From: Saccoglossus kowalevskii
Taxonomy: Eukaryota; Hemichordata; Enteropneusta; Harrimaniidae
Direction: 5' to 3'
Assembly: GCF_000003605.2 (NCBI RefSeq)
Contig: NW_003135334.1
Location: 264,082 to 291,562 of the forward strand
Length of the DNA: 27,481 nucleotides
Below the pieces are notes generated by a model, which was not told where the DNA came from, made no database searches, and saw only the letters and a list, made by a program, of their open reading frames with translations. Position 1 is the stretch's first letter. Every line of letters begins with the position of its first letter. The translations under genes were made by a program, and so were the position numbers. Positions 234 to 24,300 of this stretch are shown one piece after another.

Positions 234-1490
234 CATGTTATTTTAGCTAATTTAGCCATAGTCCATAGATTTCACTAATTCAAGATGTTGCTAATTTAGC
301 CATAGTCCATAGATTTCATTAATTCAAGATGTTGCTAATTTAGCCATAGTATTGATTTCACTAATTCAAGATGTTGCTAATTTAGCCATAGTCCATAGAT
401 TTCATTAATTCAAGATGTTGCTAATTTAGCCATAGTCCATAGATTTCATTAATTCAAGATGTTGCTAATTTAGCCATAGTCCATAGATTTCACTAATTCA
501 AGATGTTGCTAGTTTAGCCATAGTCCATAGATTTCATTAATTCGAGATGTTGCTAATTTAGCCATAGTCCATAGATTTCACTAATTCAAGATGTTGCTAA
601 TTTAGCCATAGTCCATATATTTCACTAATTCAAGATGTTGCTAATTTGGCCATAGTCCATAGATTTCACTAATTCAAGATGTTGCTAATTTAGCCATAGT
701 TCATACATGTAACTAATTCGAGATAACGCTAATTTAGCCATAGTCCATAGATTTCATTAATTCAAGATGTTGCTAATTTAGCCATACTCCCTAAATTTCA
801 TTAATTCAAGATGTTGCTAATTTAGCCATACTCCCTAAATTTCATTAATTCAAGATGTTGCTAATTTAGCCATAGTCCATAGATTTCACTAATTCAAGAT
901 GTTGCTAATTTAGCCATACTCCCTAAATTTCATTAATTCAAGATGTTGCTAATTTAGCCATAGTCCACAGATTTCATTAATTCGAGATGTTGCTAATTTA
1001 GCCATAGTCCATAGATTTCACTAATTCAAGATGTTGCTAATTTAGCCATAGTCTATTGATTTCACTAATTCGAGATGATGCTAATTTAGCCATACTCCCT
1101 AAATTTCATTAATTCAAGATGTTGCTAATTTAGCCATAGTCCATAGATTTCACTAATTCAAGATGTTGCTAATTTAGCCATACTCCCTAAATTTCATTAA
1201 TTCAAGATGTTGCTAATTTAGCCATAGTCCATAGATTTCATTAATTCGAGATGATGCTAATTTAGCCATACTCCCTAAATTTCATTAATTCAAGATGTTG
1301 GCTAATTTAGCCATAGTCCATAGATGTCACTAATTTAAGATGTTGCTAATTTAGCCATAGTCCATAGATTTCATTAATTCAACATGTAGCTAATTTAAAA
1401 GAAAGTATACTCTCACAATATGAATTGTTGGCACTACATTAAGATTCAGTTAATTCATGCATATACAGATAAATTCATTAAAAATTCATG
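234..1490 (+). mobile_element. Dispersed element, copy 1, with expanded internal minisatellite
   Basis: The left end has an 18-mer, catgttattttagctaat, at 234-251 that is identical at 15432-15449 and matches with one mismatch on the minus strand at 18343-18326. The right part after the array (1389-1490) has gctaatttaaaagaaagta and later ttaattcatgcat, which align in the same order with gttaatttaaaataaagta and ttaatttatgcat in copy 2. The tandem array lies between these flanks. The pattern fits a short non-autonomous element with a minisatellite-prone core, as known for bivalve 'pearl'-type and Helentron-like elements. I see no coding capacity, no clear terminal inverted repeats and no certain target-site duplication, so the class is open and both outer ends are approximate. 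Confidence 0.55.
246..1388 (+). repeat. 44-bp minisatellite, about 26 copies
   Basis: The unit starts gctaatttagccatag and ends ttcaagatgtt. I count 26 near-complete copies starting at 246, 290, 334, 376 and then almost every 44 bases, ending in a truncated unit at 1389. Copy 3 is 42 bp and copy 24 is 45 bp. Two unit types exist: type A with catagtccatagattt and type B with catactccctaaattt. Type B occupies the copies at 772, 816, 904, 1080, 1168 and 1256. Divergence between copies is low, which suggests recent expansion or homogenisation. The array lies in intron 3. Confidence 0.95.
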
Positions 1491-1682: not shown

Positions 1683-1781
1683 TTCCTTTTCCTCCTTCGC
1701 CTCGATGTTCTTCGACATCCTCTACTGTATGAGAATCTCCATCATCTTCTGTATGGGATGGTTTGTTGGGACTTGGTGGAA
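1683..1781 (-). CDS. FGFRL1: FGFRL1-like exon 3: acidic linker (acid box)
   Basis: This is a 99-nt exon with a strong acceptor (CTTTGTTCTTTTTCAG) and a strong donor (GGAA|GTAAGT), in phase 1 at both ends, so it can be included or skipped without a frameshift. Read in the frame inherited from exon 2, it encodes residues 113-145: a proline-rich start (VPPSPNKPSHT), then the acidic runs EDDGD and VEDVEE, then a Gly/Lys-rich end. There is no in-frame stop. FGFRs and FGFRL1 carry such an acidic linker between Ig1 and Ig2. In FGFRs it dampens heparin and FGF binding, and Ig1 and acid-box exons are often alternatively spliced. The linker sequence itself is poorly conserved, so the call rests on position, matching phase, splice-site quality and acidity. 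It was not visible as a long open frame. The next exon, expected to encode Ig2, is not between here and base 1. Confidence 0.8.
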
Positions 1782-3715
1782 CTGAAAAAGAACAAAGTAG
1801 TTTTATTGAGATGGTCACAGGAAATTAATTAAACTTATTCATGTGTGAAATTATTTGTGAATCAATCATTTTAATAGGGCATATTATTTAACAAATGAAA
1901 ATGAAGAAAACAAAATCTGGCAGGATACTACTGTCTTCTTCACAAATGCTGTTTCACTGCCATCACATGATGTTACAGACCAATTAGGCCTAACAAAAAA
2001 GATGATTTGTTTCTGGTCATTTTGGTGTCAGTCCAAAAGTGACTGCTCACTTTTTTTATGGTTTCTGAAAATATTGTAAAAAAAAAAAAAAAAAAATTTA
2101 ACCATATCAGAACCAGAAATTGTTTTCATCCTCAAATTCTGACATATTTATTCGATTGAATAAATTATTTAGACCAAAGACACTAAAGATGGTTTGCCAG
2201 ACATATTGATAAAACTGACAAGTGTAATTTTTAACCTTGACTTCCCCATATCAACATTTAAAGAGACAAACTTAGATAAGTATTTTTGAGTATGCAGTAC
2301 TGGGGTAAATAATTAAACAGTAGGGTATAATTTATTGTGAAAAACACACATAGTATGAAACGTGTGCTCTCTATATTAGTGTTTTCAGTAATACGTCTAC
2401 ACCGCTCTTTGTTGCCAAAACAACATTTTTTTTATTTTACGATAACTCATGGCCCACTGTTTTATTAACTCTTTAATATCACAATTTTTCCCGCCAAAAT
2501 TTTACTGCAATATTTTCCTCATGTTTATGTAATTATTTTCTGTAATTTCTTTGTTGATTTTGGACCAGATATACATAATTTTCTACTGGCTATATCTTGT
2601 GATCAAAAAATTTGAAAAAATATTATGCAGGTATATTTTGTGAAAGATGACAAGTTGCTTTTGGTGTTCAGCAAAACTAATTACAATTATCTATCCACTT
2701 TCCCATGTGAACATACAACAGTATAATATAGGAAAAATACATATGTACTATTATATTTGTATAATTTCTCGATATTATAGAAAGCATGTTAACAACAAAT
2801 CACAAAGACCTGATTGTGTATTTAAGCTTTGAACAGCGACTAATTCTTAAAATATGATATGACTTTTTGGTTTTTTCTTTATTAAATGTTAGTATAGCAT
2901 TAGAATCAGTCACAAAATATGTTATACATGAATGCTAAATTTATTATTATTAGTTTTAGTTTGCAATTCATTATTGAACTGAATTATAAAAATTCAAATT
3001 GGGTTTACTTATTTTAGCAAAAAAAAAGGTCTTTAAAAAAATAAGTGTTGACCAGTTTCATCATGGATTCTATAGACTACACCTAAACTCATACAACATT
3101 GAAAGAATCAATGTTACTTTGAGATGTACTGTTTTTTTTTATAATACTGTTAAAATGATAGATATGTCCCATCCATACATGGATGTACTAGGATAAGTAT
3201 AGGTAAGAAATTAAGAGTGCACCACAAGCCTAAAAAGACTGGAAATTCAGAAAACATTTCACTTTATACCTAAGTAGTAATTGTTTTATTGAAATAAATC
3301 TTTTTTAAACTTTTGTTTTTACAAGTATAAACATCAAAATGTCTTAGGAATTAATCCATGGGAATGGAATGAAGTATGGCATGATACTGGATAACTAGAA
3401 AGTCTGGCATTCCGGAATATTAGCAAGGGATTGGAGACTTGTTATTTCCGGTTTATTATTTTAATAATGTTCTGGACAATGCAGCTACTGCCGATGGTTA
3501 GATAAGCTTGCACTAACAGTAGAAGTTTTAAGGTTCAATCAGAATTGAAATTCATATAATTTTAATGTCGATAAAATTCAAAACAAAACATGGAGAAAGA
3601 AACACTTGAATTCTTGTGAAAAATATGACAAATCATATTTTATTTTTGTTATTATATTTGTTTCTCCAGTGAGAGTAATTTGATCATATCTAAAAATTAT
3701 GCTTGATCTCAATTA

Positions 3716-3840
3716 CAGAACCTAAGAGAGGTCTACTCCAGGAACATACACCAAGTGTCTAAGCAATTAGGCTTGCAGTTTTCAAAAAGTAAAAAGTTGA
3801 CACGAGCGACGATGGACAATAACTCATATGATAAGAGCTG
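3716..3840 (+). repeat. Dispersed repeat fragment, mollusc-like
   Basis: The fragment contains, in order, taagagaggtctactccagg, aacatacaccaagtgtc, aagcaattaggcttgcagtt, ttcaaaaagt, then gttgacacgagcgacgatgg and acaataactcatatgataag. The same block order occurs at 4909-5030 and 14978-15060. The tail with gacgatggac...ataagct is, from memory, typical of repeats in mollusc genomes. No open frame of interest; boundaries are approximate. Confidence 0.5.
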
Positions 3841-4680
3841 TTAGACAAATTCGATAGTGGAGCTAACAAACTTATGCAGTTTTATTCGGTGATTTCCGTT
3901 CAAGGGGTCAACATGAATTGGAATTCTGACTAAGTTTGACAGATTACATATACTGCTATAAATATTCAGACGGCAATATGCCTGAGAGGTTACCCGTATA
4001 AAATGACAAAATTTATAGACTCGTAGTTTATTTCCCACGTGTGACACATTTTGAAAATATATGCTGGTTGAGGTAAAACATATTTATACTATTGTTATAC
4101 ATGTTATTCAATGAAACCATCCCTACTACGTAATCCGTACGCACACTATACACATGGTGCACAGAGAGTTTGCAGGAATGGATCGAGATTTCAATTTTAG
4201 GTGGATTAATTTTTTAAATCCACACCCAAAAATGAATGAGTTATAAAATTTAAAACTGTAATATAGGGGCTCCTACACCCTATGAAGCCCCTTGATTGCA
4301 GCCCCTGGTCTAATCAATTCTTTAATAAGCCTTTTCTCATTTATTTAATTAATGATCCTCGTTAGAGTGTTTACTATATTAACATATAAGTATTATTTAT
4401 TGCATTGTCCTATTGTTTTTAAAAACACTTAAATACTTATACTTAAATAACTAAACTGATTAAATAATAATAATATTTCACAACTATTTATCTTGCACAA
4501 AAAAAACAATATTTAAAAACGTGTACTGTATTTGTACTATTAGTAGCGCATGGATGTTTGTGCATGATAGACATATGTCTATGATCAAAATAAGTAATAT
4601 TTTAATTTAATTTTAGTAGTATACAACAAGCAGCCTGCTGATTAATATGGCTCTGCTGTATAATTAGACAGTTGCAAATA

Positions 4681-5030
4681 GCATTTTTTACCAAAAATAA
4701 CAAAACTACTAACTAAAATTAGAGAATTGAATGTATCATCACAAAGTGAATAAATCTGATTAAGGTCGAGATGTCTACATATATAATATCAAAGCAAATA
4801 GTGTAGCCACTTTCAAGTGATTGTAACTAGCACTTTTTACTAAAATGACAAACATTTTCATTAAAATTAGACATTCGAAGACCTCTTTACAAAATAAACA
4901 AATCTGAGAGAGGACCACCCAAGGTACATATATACCAAGTATCAAAGCAAGTGAACTTGCTGTTTTTAAGAAAACAAAAATGTGAAATTGATGCTGATGG
5001 ACAATCAGTAATATAAACATCTACGATGCA
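4681..5030 (+). repeat. Two diverged ~150-bp tandem modules of a dispersed repeat
   Basis: The module starts gcattttttaccaaaa at 4681 and again as gcactttttactaaaa at 4831. Each then has actaaaattaga or a variant, a (c/t)aaatctga block, tacatatata...tatcaaagcaa and a final poly-A/T segment. The second module ends in gatgctgatggacaatcagt. The short minus-strand open frame over 4775-5020 is a by-product. The same family occurs near 3.7 kb and 15 kb. Confidence 0.6.
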
Positions 5031-5226
5031 GCTAATAAATAATTATTGTTTTCTGTGCTTCTACATTTATGAGAAGTGTGCTTCTAATAAAGTGAATATG
5101 GTACTTGCTTAATTAAAAATACATCTGTAATATAAGGACAGACTCTCTCAAATTCCATTCATTTAGTCTTGGTTCATTATATATTATTTTGACTAAAGAC
5201 ATTTATGTGAGTATATTAACAGCTAG

Positions 5227-5386
5227 TAGAACAAATACGGTATAGATATAAAAACTGAATGTATAGACTAATTATACAAATAGAACAAATACGGTATAGA
5301 TATGAAAACTGAATGTATAGACTAATTATACAAATAGAACAAATACAGTACAGATATCAAAACTGAATGTATAGACTAATTATACA
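5227..5386 (+). repeat. 54-bp unit in three tandem copies
   Basis: Three copies begin at 5227, 5281 and 5335 with tagaacaaatac and end with gactaattatacaaa or a close variant. Copies 1 and 2 differ at one position and copy 3 at a few. It is a short local triplication in intron 2 with no coding meaning. Confidence 0.93.
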
Positions 5387-5896
5387 TGCTAGACCCGATT
5401 CCAGTAAAATACATTATATAAACATTGCAATGAATTCAATCATTTTTCATCATCTTTCAGCACACTAATTTGCATAATACAATAATTCCTCATTCACTCG
5501 TAGACAGAAGGTGCTTAGGAATACACAACTATATATCGACGGTTCTTAACGCGCAACCCTTTGATTGATAGTATTTTTATTAAACACAGAATGATTGGGT
5601 TTTGTTTTTCATGGTTTTGCTTTTTACTTATTTTTAGATGTTATAAATGACAAGAAAATGTATTTGCTAGAAAGCATATTAAACTACGCTGGCAAAAAAT
5701 TTGCATATTTGGTTCGAAATAACCACCTAGGACGTTTTACACCTGCTACAAAAATACCGTGCATACCCTTTAAAACCTCACTATAATTATTTGCACAGGA
5801 AGTATGCTGCAAAAAAATATGTAAACCTTTGTAATTTTGTGGGAGAAAAATAGTAAAATCATTGAATTCAGACATTCTCTCAAAGTTACTAAGCAT

Positions 5897-5910
5897 GTTG
5901 CTATGGCAAC
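5897..5910 (+). promoter_or_regulatory. RFX X-box-like palindrome
   Basis: GTTGCTATGGCAAC is a perfect palindrome of GTTGC/GCAAC arms around TATG and fits the RFX X-box consensus (GTnRCC, 0-3 bases, RGYAAC) except for one base. It lies in intron 2. It could be a functional enhancer site, a repeat-borne motif or chance. Confidence 0.4.
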
Positions 5911-6074
5911 CTATACATCATCGGAAAGCTCAGTATATCTAATGTCTTGATGTCTGGGAAAAAATATATTTTTGTTTTGTTTTCAAAATGCAAAGTTTGT
6001 CTACATCTCAAAATTAATTGGCACGAACAATTGAAAACAGAATTATAGTAACAACGAGTTATTGAAAAAAAAAT

Positions 6075-6111
6075 TGCGGAACTAGGCATATTTTAATGAT
6101 CTAGTTCCGCA
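6075..6111. other. Perfect 11-bp inverted repeat (hairpin) in intron 2
   Basis: Arms tgcggaactag (6075-6085) and ctagttccgca (6101-6111) are exact reverse complements around a 15-nt loop, with possible G-T pairs extending both ends. It is unusually GC-rich for its surroundings. It could be the core of a fold-back element or a structured RNA in the intron. The function is unknown. Confidence 0.8.
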
Positions 6112-6871
6112 GTGCATGGTTTTTTGTACACTTCTTGCATTACTGTGTAACGGCAAAAAGAACTAAAAGCATTTTAAGTAAATATTTCATTTGCTGTTGT
6201 GAACAAACTAAGTGGTATCTCAATCAAAACAACCACCAACTTTTGTAAAAGAAAGAGCAAATGAATAGTTAAATGTAGCATTGTTAGTCCATTCAATGGC
6301 AAAATTCTTTACTCGTATATTGGCATTCTTTCATTACAATGAGTTTGAAAAGTTTTGAAAAATAAAGTATGTGAAGAAAGTGGCCTTTATTTTTTTCGGC
6401 GGGGAGGTCAGATGGTTTAAATTATACAGCCGAATTGGCTAGCTCTGCATTTACAAAAAGTATAAGAAGTTAAAAAAAAAGTTAAACAAAGTTCTTGGCT
6501 AACATAAAAAGATTCCATTATAATCACCCCTGTTTTTTTTTTTGTCTTTTAAGATTCAACTGATTAAAGTAATACTCAAGGAGGCATTGGAAATGATTTT
6601 CTAAACTTTTCATTTTCAATGATTTTCAGCATATAAAATACGATAGGCGATTGACTGTTTTCTGATGGGTGGATTCATAAAGATTTGTCTCTATCCCGAT
6701 TTTCTCTGGCTCTCAAAGATTTGAAACAACAGTCAATCTAGGAATATCTAGGAATAATTCAACTTGGAGCATATAAAATAATTCTCATCATTTTAATTTC
6801 ATTTTTTTCCTCTTATCACAAAAAGATACACATTTCAAATAATTTAATAAGTATGGTATATTAATACCTAC

Positions 6872-7144
6872 CTAGCACAGTTAGAGTATAGTTAACGGTG
6901 ATACTGCCAAAACCATTTGTAGCTTTACAAATATAATGTCCAGCATCCTCTAATTCCACGTCTTTGATTTTTAGTCCTTGATTCAATATGTGGAACCTGT
7001 CCCACGCATTATGGATATTTTGTTTATCCTTTGTCCAAACTGATAGGGCAGGTGGGTCTGCTTCCACCTTGCATAATAGTTTCACAGTCCTTCCAACTCG
7101 TACTCTCTGGAAACCATTTACTGTGCCAGCAAGTCTTGGAGGAC
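6872..7144 (-). CDS. FGFRL1: FGFRL1-like exon 2: first Ig-like domain
   Basis: This is the clearest coding sequence in the window. The exon is 273 nt (91 codons), flanked by a pyrimidine-rich TATCAG acceptor and a CTAG|GTAGGT donor, in phase 1 at both ends. It encodes residues 22-112 of the predicted protein and forms one I-set Ig domain. Cys46 ([10 protein letters not shown]) and Cys94 ([15 protein letters not shown]) are the disulfide pair, Trp58 (VWTKD) is the core tryptophan, and DAGHYIC is the tyrosine corner. Asn106 in NYT is a potential N-glycosylation site. The WTKD, W-x-[14 protein letters not shown] and VNYTL motifs match the first Ig domain of FGFRL1 far better than that of kinase-bearing FGFRs. 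Family members are single-pass membrane proteins that bind FGFs and heparan sulfate but lack the tyrosine kinase, and act in FGF modulation and cell adhesion. The planarian relative is nou-darake. Because the C-terminal part is outside the window, loss of the kinase is inferred, not seen. Confidence 0.93.
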
Positions 7145-7304
7145 CTGATAAAAAAAAGGAGTTGGTTAATATTGACATTTTGGAATTCAACTTGATCAAC
7201 AGTTCATGATGCAATATGAAATATGGAATATATTTATTAAAATTGTAATTATTTTATTGGATATAGTTTAAGATAACTGTCACATGATGCATTTATTTTT
7301 TTAT

Positions 7305-9170
7305 TTATTGGTGTGTCCCTAACATTATAATTATTGGTGTGTCCCCCACATCATAAATATTGGTTTGTCTCTCACATCATAATTATTGGTATGTCCCCCA
7401 CATCATAATTATTGGTGTGTCCCTCACACAATAAATATTGGTATGTCCCCCACATCATAATTATTGGTGTGTCCCTCACATTATAATTATTGGTGTGTCC
7501 CTCACATCATAATTATTGGTGTGTCCCTCACATCATAATTATTGGTGTGTCCCTCACATCATCATTATTGGTGTGTCCCTCACACAATAGTTATGGTGTG
7601 TCCCCCACATCATAATTATTGGTGTGTCCCTCACACAATAGTTATTGGTGTGTCCCTCACATCATAATTAATGGTGTGTCCCCCACATCATAATTATTGG
7701 TGTGTCCCCCACATCATAATTATTGGTGTGTCCCCCACATCATAATTATTGGTGTGTCCCTCACATCATAATTATTGGTGTGTCTCTTACATCATAATTA
7801 TTGGTGTGTTCCTCACACAACAAATATTGGTGTGTCCCCCACATCATAATTATTGGTGTGTCCCCCACATCATAATTATTGGTGTGTCCCCCACATCTTA
7901 ATTATTGGTGTGTCCCTCACATCATAATTATTGGTGTGTCCCTTACATCATTATTATTGGTGTGTTCCTCACATCATAATTATTGGTGTCCATAACATCA
8001 TAATTATCGGTGTGTCCCTAACATCATAATTATTGGTGTGTCCCTCACATCATAATTATTGGTGTGTCCCTTACATCATAATTATTGGTGTGTTCCTCAC
8101 ATCATAATTATTGGTGTCCCTAACATCATAATTATTGGTGTGTCCCCACATCATAATTATTGGTGTGTCCCTCACATCATAATTATTGGTGTGTCCCCCA
8201 CATCATAATTATTGGTGTCCCTAACATCATAATTATTGGTGTGTCCCTAACATCATAATTATTTGTATGTCCCCCACATCATAATTATCAGTGTGTTCCT
8301 CACATCATAATTATTGGTGTGTTCCTCACACAATAGTTATTGGTGTGTTCCCTACATCATAATTATTGGTGTGTCCCCCATATCATAATTATTGGTGTGT
8401 CCCCCACATCATAATTATTGGTGTGTCCCTCACATCATAATTATTGGAGTGTCCTTTACATCATAATTATTGGCATGTCCCTCACATCATAATTATTGGT
8501 GTGTCCCCCATATCATAATTATTGGTGTGTCCCTCACATCATAATTATTGGTGTGTCCCTTACATCGTAATTATTGGTGTGTCCCTCACATCATAATTAT
8601 TGGTGTGTCCCTCACATCATAATTATTGGTGTCCCTAACATCATAATTATTAGTGTGTCCCTCACATCATAATTATTGGTGTTCCTAACATCATAATTAT
8701 TGGTGTGTCCCTAACATCATAATTATTGGTGTGTCCCTCACATCATAATTATTGGTGTGTCCCTCACATCATAATTATCGGTGTGTCCCTCACATCATAA
8801 TTATTGATGTGTCCCTCACATCATAATTATTGGTGTGTTCCTCACACAATAATTATTGGTGTGTCCCTTACATCATAATTATTGGTGTGTCCCTTACATC
8901 ATAATTATTGGTGTGTCCCTCACATCATAATTATTGGTGTGTCCCTTACATCATAATTATTGGTGTGTCCCCCACATCATAATTATTGGTGTGCCCCTCA
9001 CATCATAATTATTGGTGTGTCCCTCACATCATAATTATTGGTGTGTCCCTTACATCATAATTATTGGTGTGTCCCCCACATCATAATTATTGGTGTGTCC
9101 CTCACATCATAATTATTGGTGTGTCCCTCACATCATAATTATTGGTGTGTCCCTCACATCATAATTATTG
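7305..9170 (+). repeat. 26-bp minisatellite, about 70 copies
   Basis: The unit is ttattggtgtgtccct followed by cacatcataa. It runs almost without interruption for about 1.87 kb. Variants include 24-bp units lacking one GT (ggtgtccctaac), units with cacacaata in place of cacatcata, and changes in the ccctc/ccccc/ccctt segment. Stretches of several units recur as blocks, for example near 7950 and 8066. It lies in intron 1, starting about 160 bp from the exon 2 acceptor. The open frame beginning at 9116 starts inside the last units and is not a gene. Confidence 0.96.
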
Positions 9171-11077
9171 CAACATTCAACATAGCATTAATTGTTCTAT
9201 GGGTTAGCAATGCATTCCATGGGATTAAACAAATATTCTATGACATGAAGAGTAAACCAAACTATGGTATGAAGAGTGACCAGCATATGAGCGAATTTAA
9301 CAGTACACATTTTACTATATTACACAGTGTTAACAGCATTTGTCATCACCAGCTTGCAAGGCTTAATTGATCATTATTTGTGATTTCAGGAATTTAAAAA
9401 CTTGATCCACATTATCATCAGCTTAGTAGTTTTAATATTGTTATTTATTGGTTGGAGCATATGGTGGCTAAAGACACCAAAAGGCAATACGTAATAATAT
9501 TGAATATTAGACTACAGTGAAAATAACTGTTTTTACAGAGTTTCTAAAATATATATTTAAGTAAATTTCCATTAAATACTTAAGGGGTGATATCATATGA
9601 AATCATCAATCCACAGTTTCAAGTGATGAGTTTTATGCCTATATATCCCTGAATGCTTATGCTCATATGTCTACTACAACTTAGACCAGACTTTTATTAT
9701 GCCTTGTTTCGCAAACTCGCCGAATGAAAAAAAAAAAAATTTTTAGTTCAGCGTAATTTCTCGGGCCCGCCAACTTGTAAGCGCAAAACAATGCTAAAAA
9801 AATATTATTTTTATCTTCATTTTTTTACCCCCCACTGCATAACAAATCCAAGTTGCATTTTAATTGAAGTATCATGATCAAAGTACCGAAGTCTCGCGCA
9901 GATGAGAAACAAGTTTATACATGGAATAAAATTTTATTTCATTTCTTCTCTCCGATCAATGATCTCACTTACCTACAATTCTTTGAGAATCACACAAATC
10001 TAATAAAAAAAAGATTTATTTTTTTTTGCCCTCCTTAAAAAAATTGCCTTATAAAAACTCGAGAAACAAGGAATAAAAAAATTCTGGCCTTATTGTTTTT
10101 TTTTTCTCTAAATGATTACATCTACTTCATACTTAATTTAAGTAAATGTTTCGATGGCAGTATTTTTAGCAGCGGTCACTACAAATAAATGACTATTCCA
10201 ACCCATGGATTGGAAAAAACAAGAAATATTGATATAATACAATATGATATGATTTCAACAGAGTTAAATTTCATGAGGAGAAAGTATGAAGCCTGAAAAC
10301 GAAACACAGAAAAAGTCAAAGATGTAACTAGGTGATATTTTCTTAATATGGTCAATTCATTTCAGGTGGTTGGATTAAAAAACTATAGTTAAAGCAAAAA
10401 TCTGGTGGTCCAACTCATAAAAGAATTCAGGTAGTTTTGCCATGGGCTGAAATATTTTCATTTAGTGACAGTTTCAGTTGTTTCTGAGTCACTGTATCAG
10501 TCATCTCATTACTAGAACTATTTCTTTGGACTGTGTTTTTTTACAGGTGTTCCCACTATATCGAATTTCAATGCATCAAATTGTAAACCGTTTGATTTTC
10601 ACGGCTAGAAAATTTGTGCGATTATAAGACTGTTAGACATACACAAAGACATGTTGTAGGACTTGGGAAAATTTTCTCTTACTTGCAAAATTCGCGAAAA
10701 TTTTTCTTTCGTGAAACTAAAGTAGTTTGCTGTATATATCCTTGCTATCGTAGATATATCTGTAATGCCACAGTAACTGTGTGTATTGATAAATCAAGTT
10801 GGTGAAGTGTTTTTCATTTTGTCAGCTATATACTATATATTTTTTAACCTGAATGACTCAGAGAGCCACTTAAGTTGGCCATATTTGTCGTATGAATTTG
10901 ATGCAATAGCATTTATGGAATCTGATAATAAAACGAATACTGATAAGAATTTTAATCACAATTTGAATGTTTGTTTTTTTTCATTTTTAACCAACCATGA
11001 GAAAAATATGGCTGAATTAAGTAGAACACTGAGTGGTTTATAAACTATTAGGCCATTATAGCTGTTATATTGTATGA

Positions 11078-11110
11078 GGGGAGGGGATGTAGTTTGGAAG
11101 GAGGGAGGGG
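11078..11110 (+). other. G-rich tract with four G-runs
   Basis: GGGG (11078-11081), GGGG (11083-11086), GGG (11103-11105) and GGGG (11107-11110) lie close together in otherwise AT-rich DNA. The 16-nt middle loop is long for a G-quadruplex. On the transcribed minus-strand RNA it would be C-rich. Confidence 0.35.
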
Positions 11111-14100
11111 CATGAGTGAAACTCACAAACTAATCTAAATCACAGTTATTTGAAAGGGTAGTAGGAAAACAGCAATAAATTGAACCCCTCGGCTAAACAT
11201 ATATTGCACATGGAGAAAAGCTTTGTACATGAATATTGAACCAACCTCTGAAGAAATAAATTAATGCATTTACATGTAAAATAAGAAAGGTTCTATGTTT
11301 TATTATTTATAATTAGACTAAAAAGAAAACATTTTTTAGCAAACATTTTCTTTTTTGGGCTAATTTTCTTTCATGTTTATAATATTTAGCTAGAAAACAA
11401 ACAAAAAAGTTTTTTGTCTTCACACCATGTACAACATTATATTTTGCTCATTTTCACAATGTAAATACGTGCTAGATTTTTGTTTAAGACCTGAAAATCC
11501 TAATCAGGGCGAGTCTGGATAATTAAATTAAATTTCACTCGTATTTCATTGAATTTTGAGACACAAGTCTTGATTCATAGAATGATAATCTAGAACCATG
11601 GAATTGACAAGTTTTGAATTGTAAAATTGACAAGTGCAAATTATTGGATTATGAATAATTTTATTTTCGCTGCTGGAACTTTTCAGAAAGGGGACAAAGT
11701 TTTGCGAAAGTTGACGTAATTATTTGTGCTTAGCCTTTCCACCACCAGATTTTCTTGCCTGAATTTTTCTGCACTTTTGAATATTTCTGGAGATGAACCT
11801 TGATTTTGGAGCCAACAGACAAAATTTTAGTCAATTTTCAGTTTTTACTCGAAAAATTTGAAATTTGAGACGATTTTGTGATAAAAAGAGGGAACTGGTG
11901 GTGAAAAAGTCAGAACCCCTTGTGTTAATTTCAGTGCTATAAAATTCTGTGATTTTCACCGAATTATAAAATTAAAGCCGCAAAACTACAAAAGTTAAAG
12001 GAAATTTAGTAAACTATAAAATTGTTGTTAATAGCAAAGAATGTGACCAGCATTAACACTAAAATCTACAGCTCTACTCGCCAATAAATTAATTATTATT
12101 ATCTGTAATATGTTATATTTAGTGACAAATATGACAGACATGTGTGAATTATTATATTGACTGAGTTTCATCTTGTAAACGTGTTGATGATACCGTTGCA
12201 ATCAAGGCAGGGTGAGGGGTGTGAGCACGATCCTTTCTCAGTGTGCAGTTCTTAATTATGTGCAGCTATTGCAAGTGCATATAAAACCAAAAATGGTATT
12301 TATTGCATGTTGCATTATTAAAATATGATTTAATTAGACCATTATAGTAACTAATTTATGTATTGCATGCATTTACCATATTTGCTCTATTAAAAGCTTG
12401 TTCCCAATAGAGGTGCATATGAACTACCGGTAAATATTGTTTATGTATTGTAAGCGGAATCATTTAAATACAACACATTCTTACCATAGATACACCTCTG
12501 TCATATATACCTAAGTGCGTGCACTATTAATAGTATACCATATAACGTTTTAACCCATTACTAGTATATTTCATATTAAAACAAGCGTAGGTTGTTGGAA
12601 TGTTATTTTAAATTTATTTATATATATATATATTAAACATCATATAAATTTAGAATTACTGAACTAATAATTGGACTGATAAATATATCAATCTCCAGTC
12701 TAACAAATGACAATGAATTAACGGTCTGTATTTAATTATTTTTTGAAAGAAGAATGAATGTTCCAAAAGGTATGAAGCAGACATGTAAGAAAATGTGTGT
12801 GTCATTACAGCAAAGTGCTCCAGGCAGACTAGCAAGCCCCGCAGGTCAAATTATACAACAAACAAGATTGGTTTTCGGAGTAGGGTAGTTGAACAGGTTC
12901 TGAATAGAGTCACGTTGACACAATAGTTTAAACTAAAGCCTATGTTTGGATAGGAATCCATCATGGCCGCCGACTGTCTATAGCAAGCATGCAACTCACA
13001 ATACATAACATGACTGCAATGTTGCAGTGCAACCATACACACACACCCTATGTATTAAAGCATATTGCTGTGACTGAATCACTTAACAAAATAAAAAAAA
13101 TAAAAAAATTATCAAGATATCATTTTGATTGCGATATTCATTAGTGTACGTATAATTAGACATAGCCAACTCTACACTTATCAAAATGAGGTCACTCTGT
13201 ATAAAGTTGTTCATTTGAAGTTTGAATTCAAGATATGATCAGTACAAATTAAATATGCTACACAATTCTCCAGCAGTCCTTCCCTTTCCCATATTAGAAA
13301 ATAATAATTGTTTAGATAAGTCCATTTTTAGACTTGAATTTTAACTGTTAAACTTAATGTGGTTGGATTTTAAGACTTCCATTTTTCTCAGACTACAACA
13401 CCCTTCTTTAGAACATCTCAAAATGTCTGTACCAGTAAAGCCATGAATTGATGGGCATTCTGTCCAAAGAGAGTAAAAAAAACAACATGAAATGTTTTGA
13501 CAGGGGGAAAGGTAAACAATAATAAGCCAGGTTAATTAAGAGCTGTACCAGTGTATGTGTGGGAACAATGCCGGAAACACTGAGCCTATAGGCACATGTG
13601 TGGAGTGTATTAGTGACGCACAGACACACATTTGTATACTACATAATTAAGGCAGCTTTTGTTTGTACTTGAAAAGGTGAATATTTTTTAAAATGCTGCT
13701 TGCCTTGGCAGGGTTATATATACATGTACTTTGCACCACGACTGATAAGCAATATTATTGTACGAGTCAGATTGGACTCACAACTGGAAACAGACTAGCA
13801 AACTAACAATCACTACATTCAGCAAATACGAATAAGTTTGGAATAAATCACCATTTCAACATTATTTTCTACATATTTTTAACGTAAATAATTTTTTGTT
13901 GGCCTTATAGAGATACCTCCAATTTAAACAGTTTTTAAATATTTTTATAAATTGATTTTCAAAAATCTAACAACAATTTTATTCACCAATGTACAAACTT
14001 GAAATTAAAAAAAAATAATATATTTTTAAAAATAATGAAAAATTATACATATTCAAACTTAAATTAATTCGGAAAAGAGTATGTACATACACAAGAAAAA

Positions 14101-14902
14101 ATGCTTATAAGTTTAGGTATCTGTTGAGTATTTAGGCGTGAAATTGGATTACATTACCATGGAAACCATCCTGTGAAAACATTTATTTTAAGAATGGCAA
14201 GTATTCTCTGAATATTGATTATTTAAATCCTTTTTGTCAGAGCAGTCAGTTAACACTCCAAAATAATGGAGTCTTGTCAAACACACCATTTTGGTTCGTC
14301 TTAATATTCAGTGAAGTGGTAGATTTGATAATCAATATTCGATCTACAAATCAAAATCACGGTTTATTTATATCAAATAAAAATGGGTTTGTCGTAATCC
14401 CTTGCATGCGAATTACAAGACGATCATTGCACATCTACTACACTGATGTAACATTATATATTTACTACCGTAAAAATACTGTAATCCATTTTATTTTCAT
14501 CGCTATCAATTTTCATCATACAATGATTTGACTGTTTTGAATTTTATCTGCCCCCATGCTCCCAGACAAAATTCGCAAACATTTGTCTTTCATAAAAGTG
14601 TATTACAATCTGTTATTTTTGTCACATTTATGCTAAAAATAAAATTAGAAAAAAGAAATCTAGTGCAAATATTTTGTTTCTATTCCATGTGAGGCTCAGA
14701 AGAAAAAGACAAGTTTCATGGTCAGTTTGTTTTCCAAAATCGATGAGCGCGTTTTTGTTTTTATTTTTAAATTGTTATTAAATTTAAGTGTTCTTTTTTA
14801 ATTTTCCTGAAAATTTAATTAATCTTCTTTTTTCATTTAAAAGTTTAAAAGCAAAAACACTAATTTTGTCATTTTCTTTTTATACGCTTACAACCCCCTG
14901 TG

Positions 14903-15262
14903 CAAAATTGAAATTACTGACACTAAATTAATTATTCTGATAGAAGAATGAATCCTATCAAAAAAATTTATCATCACAAATCTGAGAGAAGTCGACCGAC
15001 TGCACCCATATATACAATATCAAGGCAATCAGGGTAGCAGTTTTCAAGAAGTCAAAAATAGCATTTTATACCAAAATTGACAAAAATATTGACTAAAATT
15101 AGAGAAATAAATGTATTGTAACATAATGAACAAATAGGAGACAGAACAACCCATAGTTGTAGTGAGTAACATAATACAGCTGACAGATTTTAAGAAGAAA
15201 AAGTTTATGCTGACAGAATACAATGGCAATGACCGACAGACAGACAATCAGTGATATGAATA
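14903..15262 (+). repeat. Second locus of the ~150-bp dispersed repeat modules
   Basis: It has the same module order as 4681-5030: acaaatctgagagaag and atatatacaatatcaaggca in the first module, gcattttataccaaaattga at 15061, actaaaattagagaaataaa, then gacagacagacaatcagtga at the end. It is diverged and has no coding content. The match to the 4.7-kb locus covers most of the length. Confidence 0.55.
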
Positions 15263-15431
15263 GTTCCGCTTGTTAAAGATAACACTTTTAACTAACATGT
15301 GCAATGACCAGAACATTTTTTTTTTCTGGGACATTTTTATTACAAATCAGTAAAAAGTAAATTACACCCACATTTTCAGCTAAAAAAATATAATTAACAT
15401 AATTAAACTAAAATTGAAGAGAAACATATAT

Positions 15432-15570
15432 CATGTTATTTTAGCTAATCTGTAATTTTGCTAATACAAGACGACGTTAATTTAAAATAAAGTACCGATA
15501 TATTCTGAGATTAGTTGCACTTTAGCTAAATTAAGTTTCTGTTAATTTATGCATTGGGCCAATTTGCTAA
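15432..15570 (+). mobile_element. Dispersed element, copy 2, unexpanded
   Basis: It carries the same left 18-mer as copy 1, one short core unit (gctaatctgtaattttgc, then taatacaagacgac), then gttaatttaaaataaagta, gttgcact, and ttaatttatgcat followed by a final ttgctaa. The order of blocks matches copy 1, but there is one core unit instead of 26, and it lacks about 12 bp that the 44-bp unit has. It is about 140 bp long with no coding capacity. Boundaries are approximate. Confidence 0.5.
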
Positions 15571-16479
15571 GATGGCATCTATCCATTTCAGAGCTTCTTA
15601 CAGTATACACGAACACTACACATGGAATAATAAACTGAAATCTCTGTACAATTACAAACTTATTTGAAAAAAATATCAGATAATATGTAAGTCAATGTAC
15701 CAAATATTCTAAAGCTAAAGGGCCCTACACCACACTCAGATTGTTACACCTATAGAAAATTAAGAAGTGTTGAGGGTGACCCCCCTAACCTTAGAATTAG
15801 AGTTAATGTCGGCTTCAACAACTGTATTTCCCTGGGGGAATACCTGCTCAGATTTAAAGCCGGTTTGACAACCAAGTCTTGATCAATAGATAGCCATTTG
15901 TACATGGAAGACTAAAAATAATACAAATTATTTATTTACTAACTGTATACATTCATGTTGTGAATTACTACAGATGGTAGTTAACTAAGTTTCATATCCC
16001 TACTGGTTTAGCTCTAATTTAAAAACTCATGTGTTTGCCAGTTTTAAACCACAAGCTAGCTTCAGTCAGAAGATGCCACCTTGGCAAATCTGGATATAGA
16101 ATTTTTATGTGACTCTAGTTGCGTGAATTGTAGATCAAAAACGATGATGGATTTGAACTTGACTTTCCCTGATTCAAAACTCAGGGTAAAAGTATATACC
16201 AATGGATAAAGCCATAGATGAATAGACTCCCATGATGCACCTTGTATTATATTAATAAGCAAATCATTAGCTATCTGCTTGAGAAGACAGTGGAGTATTT
16301 ACATAACAAAGCCACACACTGATGTCATCATTTCTTAGTATTTTAAGAAGATGGACACAAAATCAGATGCATCATGGGATTGCAAGTTTACATCAATAAA
16401 GTAACAATAAAATATCAAAATAATTTTTAAAAATCTCTCTCAACTACTGTAACCTTTTTATTCATAGAGACGAAATTTT

Positions 16480-16612
16480 GTGAGTCACCGTGACTTGCTC
16501 TCCAAAAAAATCACTGTGACTCACTGTTTTAAACAATCCCCAAATTTGGCAATTTTGCCTACTCACAAATTCACAAACATTTAAATGTCTCCCATGAAAA
16601 TAAAATGACTCA
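16480..16612. promoter_or_regulatory. AP-1 motif cluster with inverted repeat
   Basis: Three exact TGASTCA motifs occur: TGAGTCA at 16481-16487 and TGACTCA at 16517-16523 and 16606-16612. The first two sit in a near-perfect inverted repeat, gtgagtcaccgtga and tcactgtgactcac, with one mismatch. It lies inside intron 1 and could be an enhancer or a degenerate fold-back repeat. Confidence 0.35.
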
Positions 16613-18230
16613 CAAAATCTACTGAAACTTAAACCAATGCAATACTTATTATCTATCAAGCTACATTACAGCACCATAACAGCCCTAATGTAAATACTTC
16701 AATTTACACGATTATTAAAATGAGACAAATTATCATATCAATCCTGTGATGCCCTAATTATTCGCTACGGTAGTATAGTTTTCAGGAATTTAATTATTAA
16801 TTTTACGAAAACTGAGCTCGTACATCATCGCCCCAAAATGGGCAGCCATCTTTGTATAAAGTCCAGTTTGTTGTCCGCAGATAAAATTAAGCATACTAAG
16901 TCATGGCAGGCGGATTGTTTCAAACTGGCTGGCTGCTGATGTTTTTCATCACAAATATTTTTGACAAGTTGTTTTTCTAAAATGTGCAACAATACAGGCT
17001 TCACCTAGTTTGGGTGGTTATTGTTTGATGCTGGTAATGTTTTCACAGCAGCATGCTAATATTTTTACAAAACTACATATTTCCATAGAATTCATCATCA
17101 ATATTTAGAGAGGTGTCAATATGCTTGGCGGGGTTTCTATTATTTGTGAGTCTCTATGGTAATTAGCAAAGCAACACGGAGATGCATGGTTGTTTTTGCA
17201 AGTCGATGTCTTACACTGATGCAGCATCTCATGCACATTCCATAACCCACCTAACACACTGAAGAAACAACCATTAAACCCTAAGAAAACAAGAACAGAG
17301 TTTCTTGATGTCACCCAGTTCAGCATGGTGCAGTAAAGAAAGCCAGACAGTACGACCCAGGCCAGCATCAAGTCTGAAATTTACCAGTCTTGACTCTCAC
17401 TCACAGTACTCAGCCATTCACGCAGTAACTGACAAAGCTGAGGAGATTTTTCATTAATTTTGCGCCGTTTCTAAGCACACATTTGTCTCTTGAATTCATT
17501 ATCCATGTATAGGAGTTAGAGGCAACATGTCAGAACCTTAGTGAGGCCAACCAACTAAATGACACAATTTGTCAATGTCAATTTTGCCCTCTTTTGACTA
17601 GTAATGCAAATAACTTGGTCTGGTTCAACTTTGACAACAATGCCCTGTATTTGTCTTTGCTTGACCTAAAGCTGTCAGGAAATGCAGTCATAAATCCTCA
17701 CTGGTGACTATCTAAATAGCATTTCCACACACTTTGCATCTCTTCTTTTGTACTCCATCTTATAACACTCAAGGACAATGCTCAGTAACACTAACCTCTG
17801 CACTAATAAACAAGGGAATTCAAGTTTTATTAAATTACACAAAACCTGGACTTGTTAAATATGTTGTTTTTTTAATTCCCAAATATGCTGTGGACATAAG
17901 TAATTTTAAAACAGTGATGTGAATGTCTACTGGTTTGCTCATTCAAATATTTCTAGTTCCAGATTCAGAAAAAAAAGTTAAAAAGTTCACGTGAAAAATA
18001 TAAATAGTTTAATTGGGTAATAAATTCAGGAACTAGTTTAGTGAGGAAAATAAATGTATTTTTGTTGATTGCCAATTAAATTAAACTGCTTTATTTCATG
18101 ATTTTTTTTTATGATTTATGAAGTCCTGAAAAGCACAGTGCTTTGTTGGCGTCAGTTTCACTGGTGTCCTTAAAGTCAAGTCACAGTACCGTTCACAATT
18201 CATTATAGAACACTATAATTTTGCAATTTT

Positions 18231-18343
18231 AGCGAATTTGACTAAATGCATAAATTAACAGATTCCTAAGTGTGTTAATACATTTTCTGTTAAATCAGTT
18301 ACATCTTGAATTAGTGAAATTACAGATTAGCTAAAATACCATG
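18231..18343 (-). mobile_element. Dispersed element, copy 3, unexpanded, inverted
   Basis: Read on the minus strand it starts catggtattttagctaat (one mismatch to the other left ends), continues ctgtaatttcactaattc then aagatgt, which is the core half of the 44-bp minisatellite unit, and ends with ctgttaatttatgcat then caaattcgct. It therefore links the minisatellite unit of copy 1 to the short form in copy 2. There is no coding capacity. A CATGG palindrome at the left end also resembles an X-box half-site (see findings). Confidence 0.5.
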
Positions 18344-21109
18344 GTAACTAAAAAGACATGTTTTACATCATCTTCCAAAATGCTGTAAATTACCAACGGC
18401 AAAAATTAATAGTATTACACTAGTTTCAGGTTACTAAGAACATTTTGAAACTCAAAATGGTGGTTGAAAACTGTCCGAACAATCACAGCTACAATGTGTA
18501 TTTGACATCACTAGTCAGGATAATGTAATTTTGAAATGTTCTGAGAATCGTCCAATCAGCAATCAGTTCTGTGAGTAGAGGGCTGTACAAATCCTAAACA
18601 ATCAATCACAATCTCATATTTGAATTTGATGTTAAATTCATAAGTATTTACAAAAATTTACTGCGACAACATCCATGGATACGATAAACCAAAATAAGTG
18701 TAAATTGATTCACAGTATTTAGACCCCTGTCAACGTATTTTCATTGTGTATTAAATATTAGATTAAAGATACGAAACATTTTCGTGAGACACAGAAAATA
18801 ATTTTCTAACAGCAAAAATTCTCAAAGTCCACAGTCACAATGACTTAAATAGGATTCCGTCATTACAAACATTGTGTGATGTAGATTGTGTGATGAATAT
18901 GTAAACAAAAATGTAAATTTTGATGAAACGCTAATCTTCTTTATATTCACCTAGAAAAAAGTTCCTTTCAAATTGTTTTTTCAAAAATGACACAGTGGAG
19001 TTTTCTTTATTGATTTTTAAATTGACATAAAAAATGCGACTTTATTTTAATATTTCATGAAAATTTACTCCTTATTTTGATTTTAAATTCTGACAAACAC
19101 CCGCAAAAAAAACAAACACATATGATATGTAATATTGTCTTTTCTATCATCAGGACTTTAGTTGGAAATTGTTAGAAGTTGACTCAAAGCATGGTAGTGT
19201 AAGCCACGGTGGTTATGATAATGTTACACTTACAAATAGTCATTGTGACGCTACTTAAAAGTAAAAATAATTAATGTTACTTTATTTTACATACGTGTTA
19301 TTTCACATTTTATCATGAAAAGAATGTCATTCAAAGTTTTTTTATTTTGATATGATTAAAACAGGAGACACAGTTTTTACAGTATTTTAGTGGAATTATA
19401 ACAACAAATGTGTTCTCATTGTGGTCTATGATAAATTGCTATTTTATGCGTATCATTTTACAGATTTTCCCAAAAAACAGATTAACAATGAACAGAAAAA
19501 CACACATACTTTTATCTAATATTCAATAAATGATTAATTATAGATAGATATTGATACGTATAATGTCATGGCTACATGCACTATAAAAATGTACACATTC
19601 TAACTTTAAGAACCTCCCCCGAGTAAAGCAGCTTAAAATTTGTCAGTTCACAATATATTAATTGCATAAATCATTTTTAATGTATATCACTCAAATTCAA
19701 TTGATTTTCAAACTTTATTATTTTCCCTTTTTCTCTGATTATTACGGACTGTGTATTTCAAAATTGTATCTATGTTTTATATTGCTTGCTTACTAATTAA
19801 TGTAGATTTGACAATATATAAATTATCCATTACTTGGTTTTAAAACATGAATTATGGGTAGAGTCTCGTAAATGTAATACACTAAGTAGCTGCAAAACCG
19901 ATTTCAATGCAATAATGTTATAAACTAAGGTAACCGAAGAATGGTGTTTTTTATTTACGATTTGAATTGTAAACTTTTTTATAAAATTGACAGACAGTTG
20001 TGTTTACCTCAATGTCATCGGTATAAAATCTAACATACAAAACAGTTATTAAGTCCATGGGGTAAAAGATTTCTGATTCTATTATTAAATATTCAAAGTC
20101 AACACAGAATATCTAACTGCTTTAGTCGGGCATAAACTTGAACTATCTTTGTTACAAAATGGCTGCCGCCGTTTGTCTGTAGGAAACACGGGGCGACATA
20201 CGTACCAATGTTTCCATGTGGGGTGGGGTGTAAACTTGTAGTGATATTTGACGTTTTGTTTATCAATCATGTCAAATTCCCTACCTTCAGGCTACAGACA
20301 CATGTCAAATATCAACAGACTTGGCATCTCAGGTAAATTCCGCAATTCAGTTCTAAAAATTTTCAATATGTGGCTGTTTTAGTGGCCAATTCCCCGTGTT
20401 GTTCTGCATTCGAGCATGGAATTATAGTTCCATGATTCGAGTATCTAACTAACTGATAAATGCATTGATAATAGTATTTCGGACGGGCTCTGTAAAATGC
20501 GTGCCCAATCGAATAATCGGTAACAAAATACATAAACCACTTAAAGTTTTAAAATTGAATTTCATTTCACGTCGACAAATTTGGTGTGCGTGAACTTGTT
20601 AGTAAGTGATAAATAGGTGCTAATGAAAGGCCAACCCCTCTCGTCAAATAAGACGACGTTCAAGTAACATTCAATAGTTATATTGCTCTACGGACGTCGT
20701 CAAAGTTATCACCGATACACGTCAAACTCTCGCTAACTGACCGTTTTACGATTTCCTTTTTTTACACTTATATGTACCTGTCATTTTAATGTGTATACAT
20801 ACTAGCCGCACGAGAGCGCGTAAATCAATGTCTAATTAGGCGAAATGGCGCTCAACAAATATTAAAGAGAATTGTGAGTGAGTAGCGAGTAACGTTAATT
20901 GTAACAGCGCTGTAAAATCGGCTGTAACGCGTAGATTAGGGAGCAATAACTACAACGCACGGCCATTGCAAACTTGTGAGGTCTTTGATGTTTGACTGGA
21001 GGCAAGATCTGATCGCAACAAGCGGACTAAAAGCTGCGATCACACGAAAGGTATCGTATTTACATATAGGCAGAACTTGAAGGGAAAACTACATTTACAT
21101 AGAGATTAC

Positions 21110-21173
21110 CTCTTTGTGCCATTATCACGCTCAGTGTTGAAACAAACAAGACTAGGTTCACCAGCTTCGCCAT
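21110..21173 (-). CDS. FGFRL1: FGFRL1-like exon 1: start codon and signal peptide
   Basis: This exon is too short to show as a long open frame. On the minus strand an ATG at 21173-21171 has A at -3 and G at +4, a good initiation context. It opens 21 codons reading MAKLVNLVLFVSTLSVIMAQR: a lysine at residue 3, a hydrophobic core at about residues 4-18, and a likely signal-peptidase site after Ala19. The coding part ends with one extra G followed by GTAATC, a usable 5' splice site in phase 1. Exon 2 also starts in phase 1, and the join gives Arg-Gly-Pro-Pro at the start of the mature protein, the same arrangement as in vertebrate FGFRL1. The 5' untranslated part must extend to higher coordinates, but I cannot place the transcription start. 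Signal peptides are not conserved in sequence, so the case rests on phase, junction and topology. Another first exon remains possible. Confidence 0.78.
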
Positions 21174-21176
21174 CTT
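21168..21176 (-). promoter_or_regulatory. YY1-like motif overlapping the start codon
   Basis: AAGATGGCG on the minus strand matches the YY1 core (AAGATGGCGGC) over nine bases and includes the predicted ATG. YY1 sites at or near initiation codons of short 5' untranslated regions are known in animals. Part of this match follows automatically from a good initiation context followed by an alanine codon. Confidence 0.3.
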
Positions 21177-21297
21177 GGACTGCTTTAGTACGATCGGTGG
21201 ATGCCAGGTCGGTCAAAGTACGCCCCGAACACGCTGTTATTTGTATGCGACTGCAAACCTGGTTGGACAGGAAAAAACAACTACGTTAATGAAGGCG

Positions 21298-21345
21298 GTA
21301 GTGTCGTTGTAAAAGAGCCTAACAAAACGTGACCAACGACACTAC
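21298..21345. other. Perfect 12-bp inverted repeat upstream of the start codon
   Basis: Arms gtagtgtcgttg (21298-21309) and caacgacactac (21334-21345) are exact reverse complements around a 24-nt loop. The element lies about 125-170 bp upstream of the FGFRL1-like ATG, so it is in the 5' untranslated region or the proximal promoter, depending on where transcription starts. Confidence 0.8.
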
Positions 21346-24300
21346 GATGATCAACTGGTAATCATAATAGCGTAATGGTGTGGGTGAAAGAAAAAAAGTA
21401 GAGCTACAAGTAATTTAACACATTGCCCTACGAGAATGATCGATGGCCATTGCTTTGTAATATGACAGATAGCCTGCAGTTTATCCTGTCGCGACATAAC
21501 TTCCAACACTGGCACAACCGATATATTATGTTGTAGATACATATGCATACAGTAGCCAACTTAATATCTAGCGTACTGGAGCCCGCAAATTATGAACTAA
21601 ATTAAGCGTAAGTGTATATAATGTGGCCAAACACACGCGTCATCCGTTCACAGCACAATAAAGATCGCCTAGTAAAACGCAACACCACCTTGGTTCTCCA
21701 AAAATGTCGAGAAGTGTAACACCTCAATACTTTAAATGCTGGCAATTCAGATGCATCAATGGTGGAGTCATAACAGCACCATGTCTTAATTCATCACTGG
21801 TTTAACTCAATAACCAGAACAGCTAGTAAATTTCCTTCCGATTGTCGCGTCCCGGATAGTCCGTGTATACGTCTTCAGCAGGACTTGTCTTATTTCTCCA
21901 ATGGCAATATAGGATGTCGGTGTGCACACTTTGGTTTTTCTTTTGGTATTGTCCCACACTACAGCATGCATGAAGGTAATCACACAGCTCCTATACAATA
22001 ACACAGGCTTCCTTTGTTGTATAGAATTGTACGTAATCCAACAAGCGCTGTGGCTATTAAGTACCTAGCAACGGAACCAAAGGCGCACTCGTTGAAAAAG
22101 ACATCTACTCGGCCAGTTCCACTCACCGTCCAACATACACTGTTTCATTTGAATAAAGACACCAACGTGAAGCACTGGTTTTTCGCTGAGTTGGTTTCAT
22201 ACAATGCGGACACTTTTCAGAAGGCACCTACAACGATCACAGAGTCCCACTATTCAAATGCTAATATAACTAGTGGCCAATTATACCGAGGGTATTACGG
22301 AAACAATCCAACTGAACAACGCCAATGTATATAAAAATAATAAAGGCCACCAGAGAGAAACGGCACAAACAAGCCTTCAAACTTTGAGCGGCGGGTAACG
22401 AATAACTAGACCCCGGTAGTCCGACGTTGAGGTCACATATATTAAAACTAGCTTTTGCTGTTCTGCTGTGGTATACGTATCTGATTTCAATCGAAAGCTT
22501 TGGTGGGGCTTGGCATGCTTTGCGGGGCGCCAAACCTAGTGCTCAACTCGAGCATCTAACAGGCTATCCCGGTTGTTCATCGAACAATGCAAAGAAACTG
22601 AGACGATGGCCAAATGAAAGACCGCCTTTTCCACCAAAGTGCGTGCAAGCCAGTCGACCGAAACGGTCATAAAAGCGTATCGTGAAATCGTAGTAAAAAT
22701 ACCGAGCCGCGTTTTGCTACTCGGTTTGCCGTGACATGGACAGCTACACGCTCGTAGCTGGATGCAATCAACGAACAGTATTGACAGCTCTTTGAAGAGT
22801 CATGGGAAAATACATATCGACCAATCACTACACAGGAGACATGGGTGACCGAAGTTCCCATTATTGTCGGCACCCCCCTGGAATGCATCCGTCCCGAAAC
22901 CTTTTGGCCTATGCACTCAGGTTTCAAGTTACAACATCGGTACTATTTAAGTTTTTAAAAGGACTAAGTTTAATTGCACAAATTGGTATACATGTAAATA
23001 TACACTCCCACTAATAATAACTTATTTCAAAGCAAGCCTGATTTGCACGATTCTTAGATGTTTCCTTAGTAGTCAGTCTGTAAGTGAATACCAGACACTC
23101 CCAACTGATCTTGCTGCTCGTTTTTCCCAAACTCCTTCACTTCAAACGATACTCCTTACTCAACGCCATTTACTTTAAAAGCAACACATTACAATGGGCA
23201 CTTTGTGAATGGAATTTTATAACACGTTTTGCCATGCCACTTGAGAGACTTTATGAAACAGGCTACAATTAAAGTTGATTGCCAATGTGAAAATCCTAAA
23301 CTCAGCCCACATTTAGGGTGCTCATCGGTTACCCTGACAACAACCATCCCTTTCATATATGGCATGAAATTGAAAGTGTCGGTGTATTTGTTTAATGGCC
23401 ACAAGTATGCTTCTTTATGAGGGAGACCGGTTTGTTTTAGAACCACGTTCATGTCAATGAAGGAGTGTCGTTTGAACGTGTGTAAATTACTCGCCGCCAG
23501 ACAGATACACACGTGGGACCTCCCACCAAAGGTACCCACTCGTGATCACAAAATGGTAAGACGAATAATGAATTTCATCACAGGACATTGACGACACTGA
23601 GAAAAGAAGGCAAGCATTTACCGCCATTACCACGCTATCATTGCGTTTATCACATTAAACTAACTCATTCATAACACGGCTTTCTCTTCTAAAATAATGC
23701 CCAAGATATATGCAGTTTCTTCACAGAAACAGTCTCGCCATGATACCATTGACTACAGTTACCTCTTTCTATCGATTGTCCACTACGACCCCGGAGTGCA
23801 GGTGCATGATTCTGTATGCTAATTTCATCTTGTCAGTTTTTTAGTTATAGTTTAAACAAACTTGCTGTCTAAACAGATAAACTTAAATACCATAACCTAC
23901 TCCAGTTATAAATAAACACTCAAATAACCGCCCAATACGTCTCAACTGTATACCTGTCAAGTGGCAAAAAAAAAAAGCGAGCGCATTGTTTCACACAGAA
24001 AAGGGCGCAGTACGTTAATAACGCTACACCAATGCTGGCATAGTTCAGAACAGAAATACTCGCTGATAACCGTCAATCCCTTCAACATATTTGACCTAGT
24101 GTATGGCTAGTGTGCTTCACCATGTTTACGACTGCCAGGAAGAGCAGGTTATAGTATATAGTAGTATAGTAAATTAAATCATTACTGTACAGTTAAACGC
24201 ATATGTACTGGATTCAGTCACCGAAGAGTAAAAATATCAACAATGAGTTGTAACACACGTCTCGTCTTTTTTTATCGCGATTTAGTCCATAAAAAGTAAT

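What the first reader, a model, noticed from the sequence alone, without database searches (positions are those of the whole stretch)
1683..21173. Three-exon 5' half of an FGFRL1 gene with matching phase-1 introns
Exon 2 is recognisable as FGFRL1 Ig1. The flanking signal-peptide and acid-box exons are not visible as long open frames, but both have good splice sites in the phase needed for joining. Spliced, they give 145 codons without a stop, in the known domain order. The agreement of phase, topology and order across 19.5 kb is strong evidence for a real gene.
Basis: partly seen in the sequence, partly recalled or inferred. Interest (0 to 1): 0.7.

Follow-up and report, generated by a model that had tools for sequence, protein, structure and literature searches.

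The report
Front half of animal FGFRL1 gene
This stretch holds the first three coding exons of an ordinary FGFRL1 gene, a kinase-less relative of the fibroblast growth factor receptors known across the animals, so it is a correct reading but not a surprise.

Summary
On the minus strand three exons (21173-21110, 64 nt; 7144-6872, 273 nt; 1781-1683, 99 nt) each end in phase 1 and splice to 145 open codons: signal peptide, one I-set Ig domain (Pfam E 8.7e-16), acidic linker. The product is 61% identical over 103 residues to human FGFRL1 and 25% to FGFR1 (both recalled from memory). Six other Ig matches in the same genome are 32-39% identical. Published sea urchin FGFRL1 has the same exon order, phase-1 junctions, a 273-bp Ig1 exon and the ArgG|lyProPro junction (PMC2806250); Nematostella and human share the plan (PMC2754479). 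Exon 1 is weakest: its donor is mediocre and a similar exon arises in 9 of 60 random copies. The junction and the CpG maximum over exon 1 support it. Ig2, Ig3 and transmembrane exons were not found in 260,000 bases downstream, 100,968 of which read N. New member of a well-known family; low interest.

The parts
21110..21173 (-). Exon 1, coding part: start codon and signal peptide MAKLVNLVLFVSTLSVIMAQR, ends in phase 1 (Arg, then first base of a Gly codon)
   Evidence: only signal-peptide-like exon candidate upstream of exon 2 on this strand; junction ArgG|lyProPro as in sea urchin; weak donor
6872..7144 (-). Exon 2: first immunoglobulin (I-set) domain, 273 nt, phase 1 to phase 1
   Evidence: the only Pfam match at E 0.01 or better in a six-frame scan of the window (found; none); 273 bp also in sea urchin
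1683..1781 (-). Exon 3: acidic linker (acid box), 99 nt, phase 1 to phase 1, donor GGAA|GTAAGT
   Evidence: sea urchin exon 3 also ends GGAA|gtaagt in phase 1
7145..21109 (-). Intron 1 (13,965 nt), with a 26-bp minisatellite of about 72 copies at 7305-9170
1782..6871 (-). Intron 2 (5,090 nt), with a 54-bp x 3 tandem repeat at 5227-5386
20251..21250 (.). Highest CpG observed/expected of the window (1.29, of 36 windows of 1 kb) over exon 1, fitting a promoter and first exon; the 6 kb further upstream is also raised (0.62-1.17)

Best explanation
The minus strand carries the first three coding exons (signal peptide, Ig1, acid box) of the FGFRL1 gene of an animal. Shown here: the open spliced frame, the Ig domain, the phases and the match to published FGFRL1 structure. 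Inferred from the family: transcription starts near 21.2 kb; the three exons join to Ig2, Ig3 and transmembrane exons further left; the product is a cell-surface receptor without kinase that binds FGFs and heparan sulfate, can be shed, and damps FGF signalling or promotes cell adhesion. Ig1 and the acid box are probably modulatory, since mice lacking Ig1 are viable and normal but with a reduced life span (passage of PMC12026108).
For: exons, phase, 145 open codons; I-set E 8.7e-16; six-frame Pfam scan, only the Ig1 domain; 61% over 103 aa to recalled human FGFRL1 against 25% over 102 to recalled FGFR1; 206 bits for itself, 28-37 bits for the six other matches in its genome; published gene structure; CpG maximum at exon 1; chance tests.
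Against: Exon 1 donor is weak and exon 1 alone is not beyond chance (9 of 60 random copies). The raised CpG content is not confined to exon 1. No Ig2, Ig3 or transmembrane exon was found in 260,000 bases downstream, 159,032 of them readable. No transcript data.
Confidence: 0.95

Rival explanations
1. The exons are the 5' part of a true FGFR with kinase, which has the same signal peptide, Ig1, acid box order.
For: Same domain order; the FGFR1 chain 8jqi_B is among the PDB matches and its match covers Ig1 and part of the linker.
Against: 25% identical to recalled human FGFR1 (25 of 102) against 61% to recalled human FGFRL1 (63 of 103); only FGFR1 of the FGFRs was compared in this way.
Confidence: 0.03
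2. Exons 2 and 3 are FGFRL1, but the real first exon is another one and 21173-21110 is a chance signal-peptide-like frame.
For: Weak donor; 9 of 60 random copies hold such an exon; in a mollusc and an annelid the first exon is split in two.
Against: Only candidate on the strand, CpG maximum there, and junction residues ArgG|lyProPro equal to those of sea urchin.
Confidence: 0.06
3. A decayed or truncated copy (pseudogene or partial duplicate) of FGFRL1.
For: No Ig2 or Ig3 exon in 159,032 readable downstream bases.
Against: No stop in 145 spliced codons, consensus splice sites in exons 2 and 3; no second strong match to this Ig1 in the genome; 100,968 of 260,000 downstream bases read N.
Confidence: 0.03

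Closest known systems
Sea urchin (Strongylocentrotus purpuratus) FGFRL1 gene, PMC2806250 (abstract and whole Results section read)
   Same: Signal peptide, Ig1, acid box exon order; junctions in phase 1; Ig1 exon 273 bp; exon 1 ends ArgG and exon 2 starts lyProPro; exon 3 ends GGAA|gtaagt
   Different: Acid-box exon 84 bp there, 99 bp here; exons 4 to 6 not seen here
Human and Nematostella FGFRL1, PMC2754479 (abstract, first of three parts of the Results, and the gene-organization section read)
   Same: Exon 1 signal peptide, exon 2 Ig1, exon 3 box; exons 1 to 5 end in phase 1
   Different: Only the first three exons are seen here
FGFR1
   Same: Signal peptide, Ig1, acid box order
   Different: 25% identity to recalled human FGFR1; kinase exons not seen

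Membership tests
FGFRL1 | FGFRL1-type Ig1 sequence | tested here: met
   63 of 103 identical to recalled human FGFRL1; I-set domain
FGFRL1 | Signal peptide, Ig1 and acid box on separate exons with phase-1 junctions | tested here: met
   exon 1 is the least certain
FGFRL1 | Ig2, Ig3 and transmembrane exons | tested here: inconclusive
   none found in 260,000 downstream bases, 100,968 of which read N; the whole-genome search for them did not complete
FGFRL1 | No tyrosine kinase domain | not testable with these tools
   3' part of the gene was not found in the DNA at hand
FGFRL1 | Grouping with FGFRL1 in a tree | not tested
   no collection of animal proteins at hand
FGFR1-4 | FGFR-type Ig1 sequence | tested here: not met
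   25 of 102 identical to recalled human FGFR1; FGFR2-4 not compared this way

The most novel reading that the evidence does not exclude
The gene ends soon after the acid box and makes a secreted Ig1-acid-box fragment, a soluble FGFRL1-derived protein without the ligand-binding Ig2-Ig3 part.
Probability: 0.02. Interest if true: 0.4.

Novelty: new member of a known kind. Interest (0 to 1): 0.06.

Why it matters
It adds a further example of the deep conservation of FGFRL1 gene structure, in print since 2009 from sea anemone to human (PMC2754479, PMC2806250). It may help annotate this genome, because exons 1 and 3 are short and easily missed by gene finders.

Tried and rejected
Six-frame Pfam scan of the window at E 0.01, X at each stop, each frame cut once near the middle: nothing but the Ig1 domain. 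tRNA scan (bacterial code) and Rfam at gathering scores: nothing. Phage-record DNA search with 20500-22500: no match. Viral-contig search with Ig1: 4 pattern matches, none confirmed as a relative. Bacterial promoter scan of 21100-22100: not meaningful for an animal gene. Full-text search for the peptide CKATNGFGS: 0 papers. A literature search for FGFRL1 with mollusc, annelid, brachiopod or regeneration matched 1,052 papers; of the 10 listed, PMC2754479 alone mentions FGFRL1, the rest were not seen. The searches were seen as listings, apart from PMC12026108 (passages) and PMC7492417 (abstract).

I looked for Ig2 and Ig3 exons in 60 kb and then 260 kb downstream: none. Short matches to recalled residues 362-379 had E 2.1 and 4.7, and one remained at E 6.9; I take them as chance. 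The outermost 4,081 bases of the contig on that side were not fetched.

The six other Ig loci of the genome (L002-L007) are 32-39% identical to this Ig1 and 30-38%. Recalled human FGFRL1 matches them at up to 43% over 70 columns (L007, Ig1 part), below the 63% over 91 for exon 2. Which genes they belong to was not worked out; L007 alone was shown to be an Ig domain by Pfam. In one search L002 and L004 were read on the strand opposite to their match, so their empty rows say nothing; L003, L005 and L006 were not scanned.

The organism was not identified; no call named it.

Full report
The observation. On the minus strand there is a start codon at 21173 followed by MAKLVNLVLFVSTLSVIMAQR and a GT at 21109; an exon from 7144 to 6872 between AG and GT; and an exon from 1781 to 1683 followed by GTAAGT. 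Exon lengths are 64, 273 and 99 nt. Joined, they give 436 nt, i.e. 145 codons without a stop, and every exon ends after the first base of a codon.

More than chance? With approximate animal splice matrices typed from general knowledge, four of the five splice sites rank among the best 11 of more than 1,200 sites of their kind on the strand; the exon 1 donor ranks 61 of 1,615. In the 6.9 kb downstream of exon 2, a search for open phase-1/phase-1 exons of 45-240 nt found only 1781-1683 on the coding strand and none on the other; 100 Markov-1 copies gave a mean of 0.01 such exons and none with 25% or more acidic residues. In the 20.3 kb upstream, a search for signal-peptide exons with a phase-1 donor found only 21173-21110 on the coding strand and none on the other, but 9 of 60 Markov-1 copies held one. 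A first run with a higher donor threshold found no candidate on either strand, because the nominated donor lies below it. The thresholds were set after the nominated exons were known, so these are not clean tests. Exon 3 is convincing by itself; exon 1 is not, and leans on other evidence.

What it is. Pfam gives one Ig domain, best model I-set, E 8.7e-16, and a six-frame scan of the window at E 0.01 finds no other domain. Against sequences recalled from memory, residues 19-121 are 61% identical (63 of 103, no gaps) to human FGFRL1, running across the exon 1/2 junction, while the best match to human FGFR1 is 25% (25 of 102). Exon 2 alone is 63% identical over 91 residues. In the window's own genome (572 Mb, 4,830 contigs) the Ig1 query finds itself at 206 bits and six other places at 28 to 37 bits and 32 to 39% identity. 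So FGFRL1 is the right name, and no second strong match to this Ig1 was seen in that genome. Of 370 PDB sequences matched, the best 60 were listed; none is called FGFRL1, and chains of FGFR1, 2, 3 and 4 appear among many other Ig proteins.

Gene structure compared with print. In sea urchin FGFRL1 (PMC2806250, Results read) exon 1 encodes the signal peptide, exon 2 Ig1 (273 bp), exon 3 the acid box (84 bp), with the junctions in phase 1; exon 1 ends ArgG, exon 2 begins lyProPro, exon 3 ends GGAA|gtaagt. Here exon 1 ends ArgG, exon 2 is 273 nt and begins lyProPro, exon 3 is 99 nt and ends GGAA|GTAAGT. PMC2754479 reports the same six-exon, phase-1 plan in Nematostella and human. It also reports departures: exon 1 split in a mollusc and an annelid, the box split in Xenopus and (on a gene prediction that PMC2806250 later corrected with cDNA) in sea urchin, and very different structures in Ciona and ecdysozoans. 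CpG observed/expected is highest over exon 1 (1.29 at 20251-21250, of 36 windows), which fits a promoter there, though the 6 kb further upstream is raised too (0.62-1.17). Together these support exon 1.

What was not found. The Ig2, Ig3 and transmembrane exons should lie left of the window. A tblastn search with recalled human FGFRL1 over 260,000 fetched bases downstream on the same contig found none; 100,968 of these bases read N (assembly gaps or withheld), including sequence close to the window. The whole-genome search for them did not complete. The absence is therefore inconclusive.

How it works. By family knowledge and passages of a review (PMC12026108, passages only), FGFRL1 is a cell-surface receptor without kinase that binds some FGFs, is shed from membranes, antagonised FGF signalling in Xenopus embryos and promotes adhesion through heparan sulfate; mice lacking Ig1 are viable and normal but with a reduced life span. 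For this gene, all of this is inference.

Verdict. An ordinary, correctly recognised FGFRL1 5' half. New member of a known kind; low interest.

Noticed in passing
window 234-1462, 15429-15577, 18222-18346 (minus): Three copies of one dispersed short repeat. One of them holds the 26-copy 44-bp minisatellite between flanks that resemble the other two copies, which hold roughly one degenerate unit each. The layout recalls non-autonomous Helentron elements with central tandem repeats described in the Pacific oyster (PMC7492417, abstract read); membership was not tested.
   Followed up: partly
window 7305-9170: 26-bp minisatellite of about 72 copies, 90% matches, starting about 160 bases upstream of the Ig1 exon in intron 1; CpG observed/expected there is 0.03-0.13.
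   Followed up: no
window 26786-27481: 40-bp minisatellite of about 17 copies that reaches the window end; it carries long open frames on the minus strand, up to 250 codons, which I take as a by-product of the repeat.
   Followed up: no
window 20251-27250: GC and CpG content are higher from exon 1 on upstream (GC 0.34-0.45, CpG o/e 0.62-1.29) than in most of the gene body; no Pfam match at E 0.01 there.
   Followed up: partly
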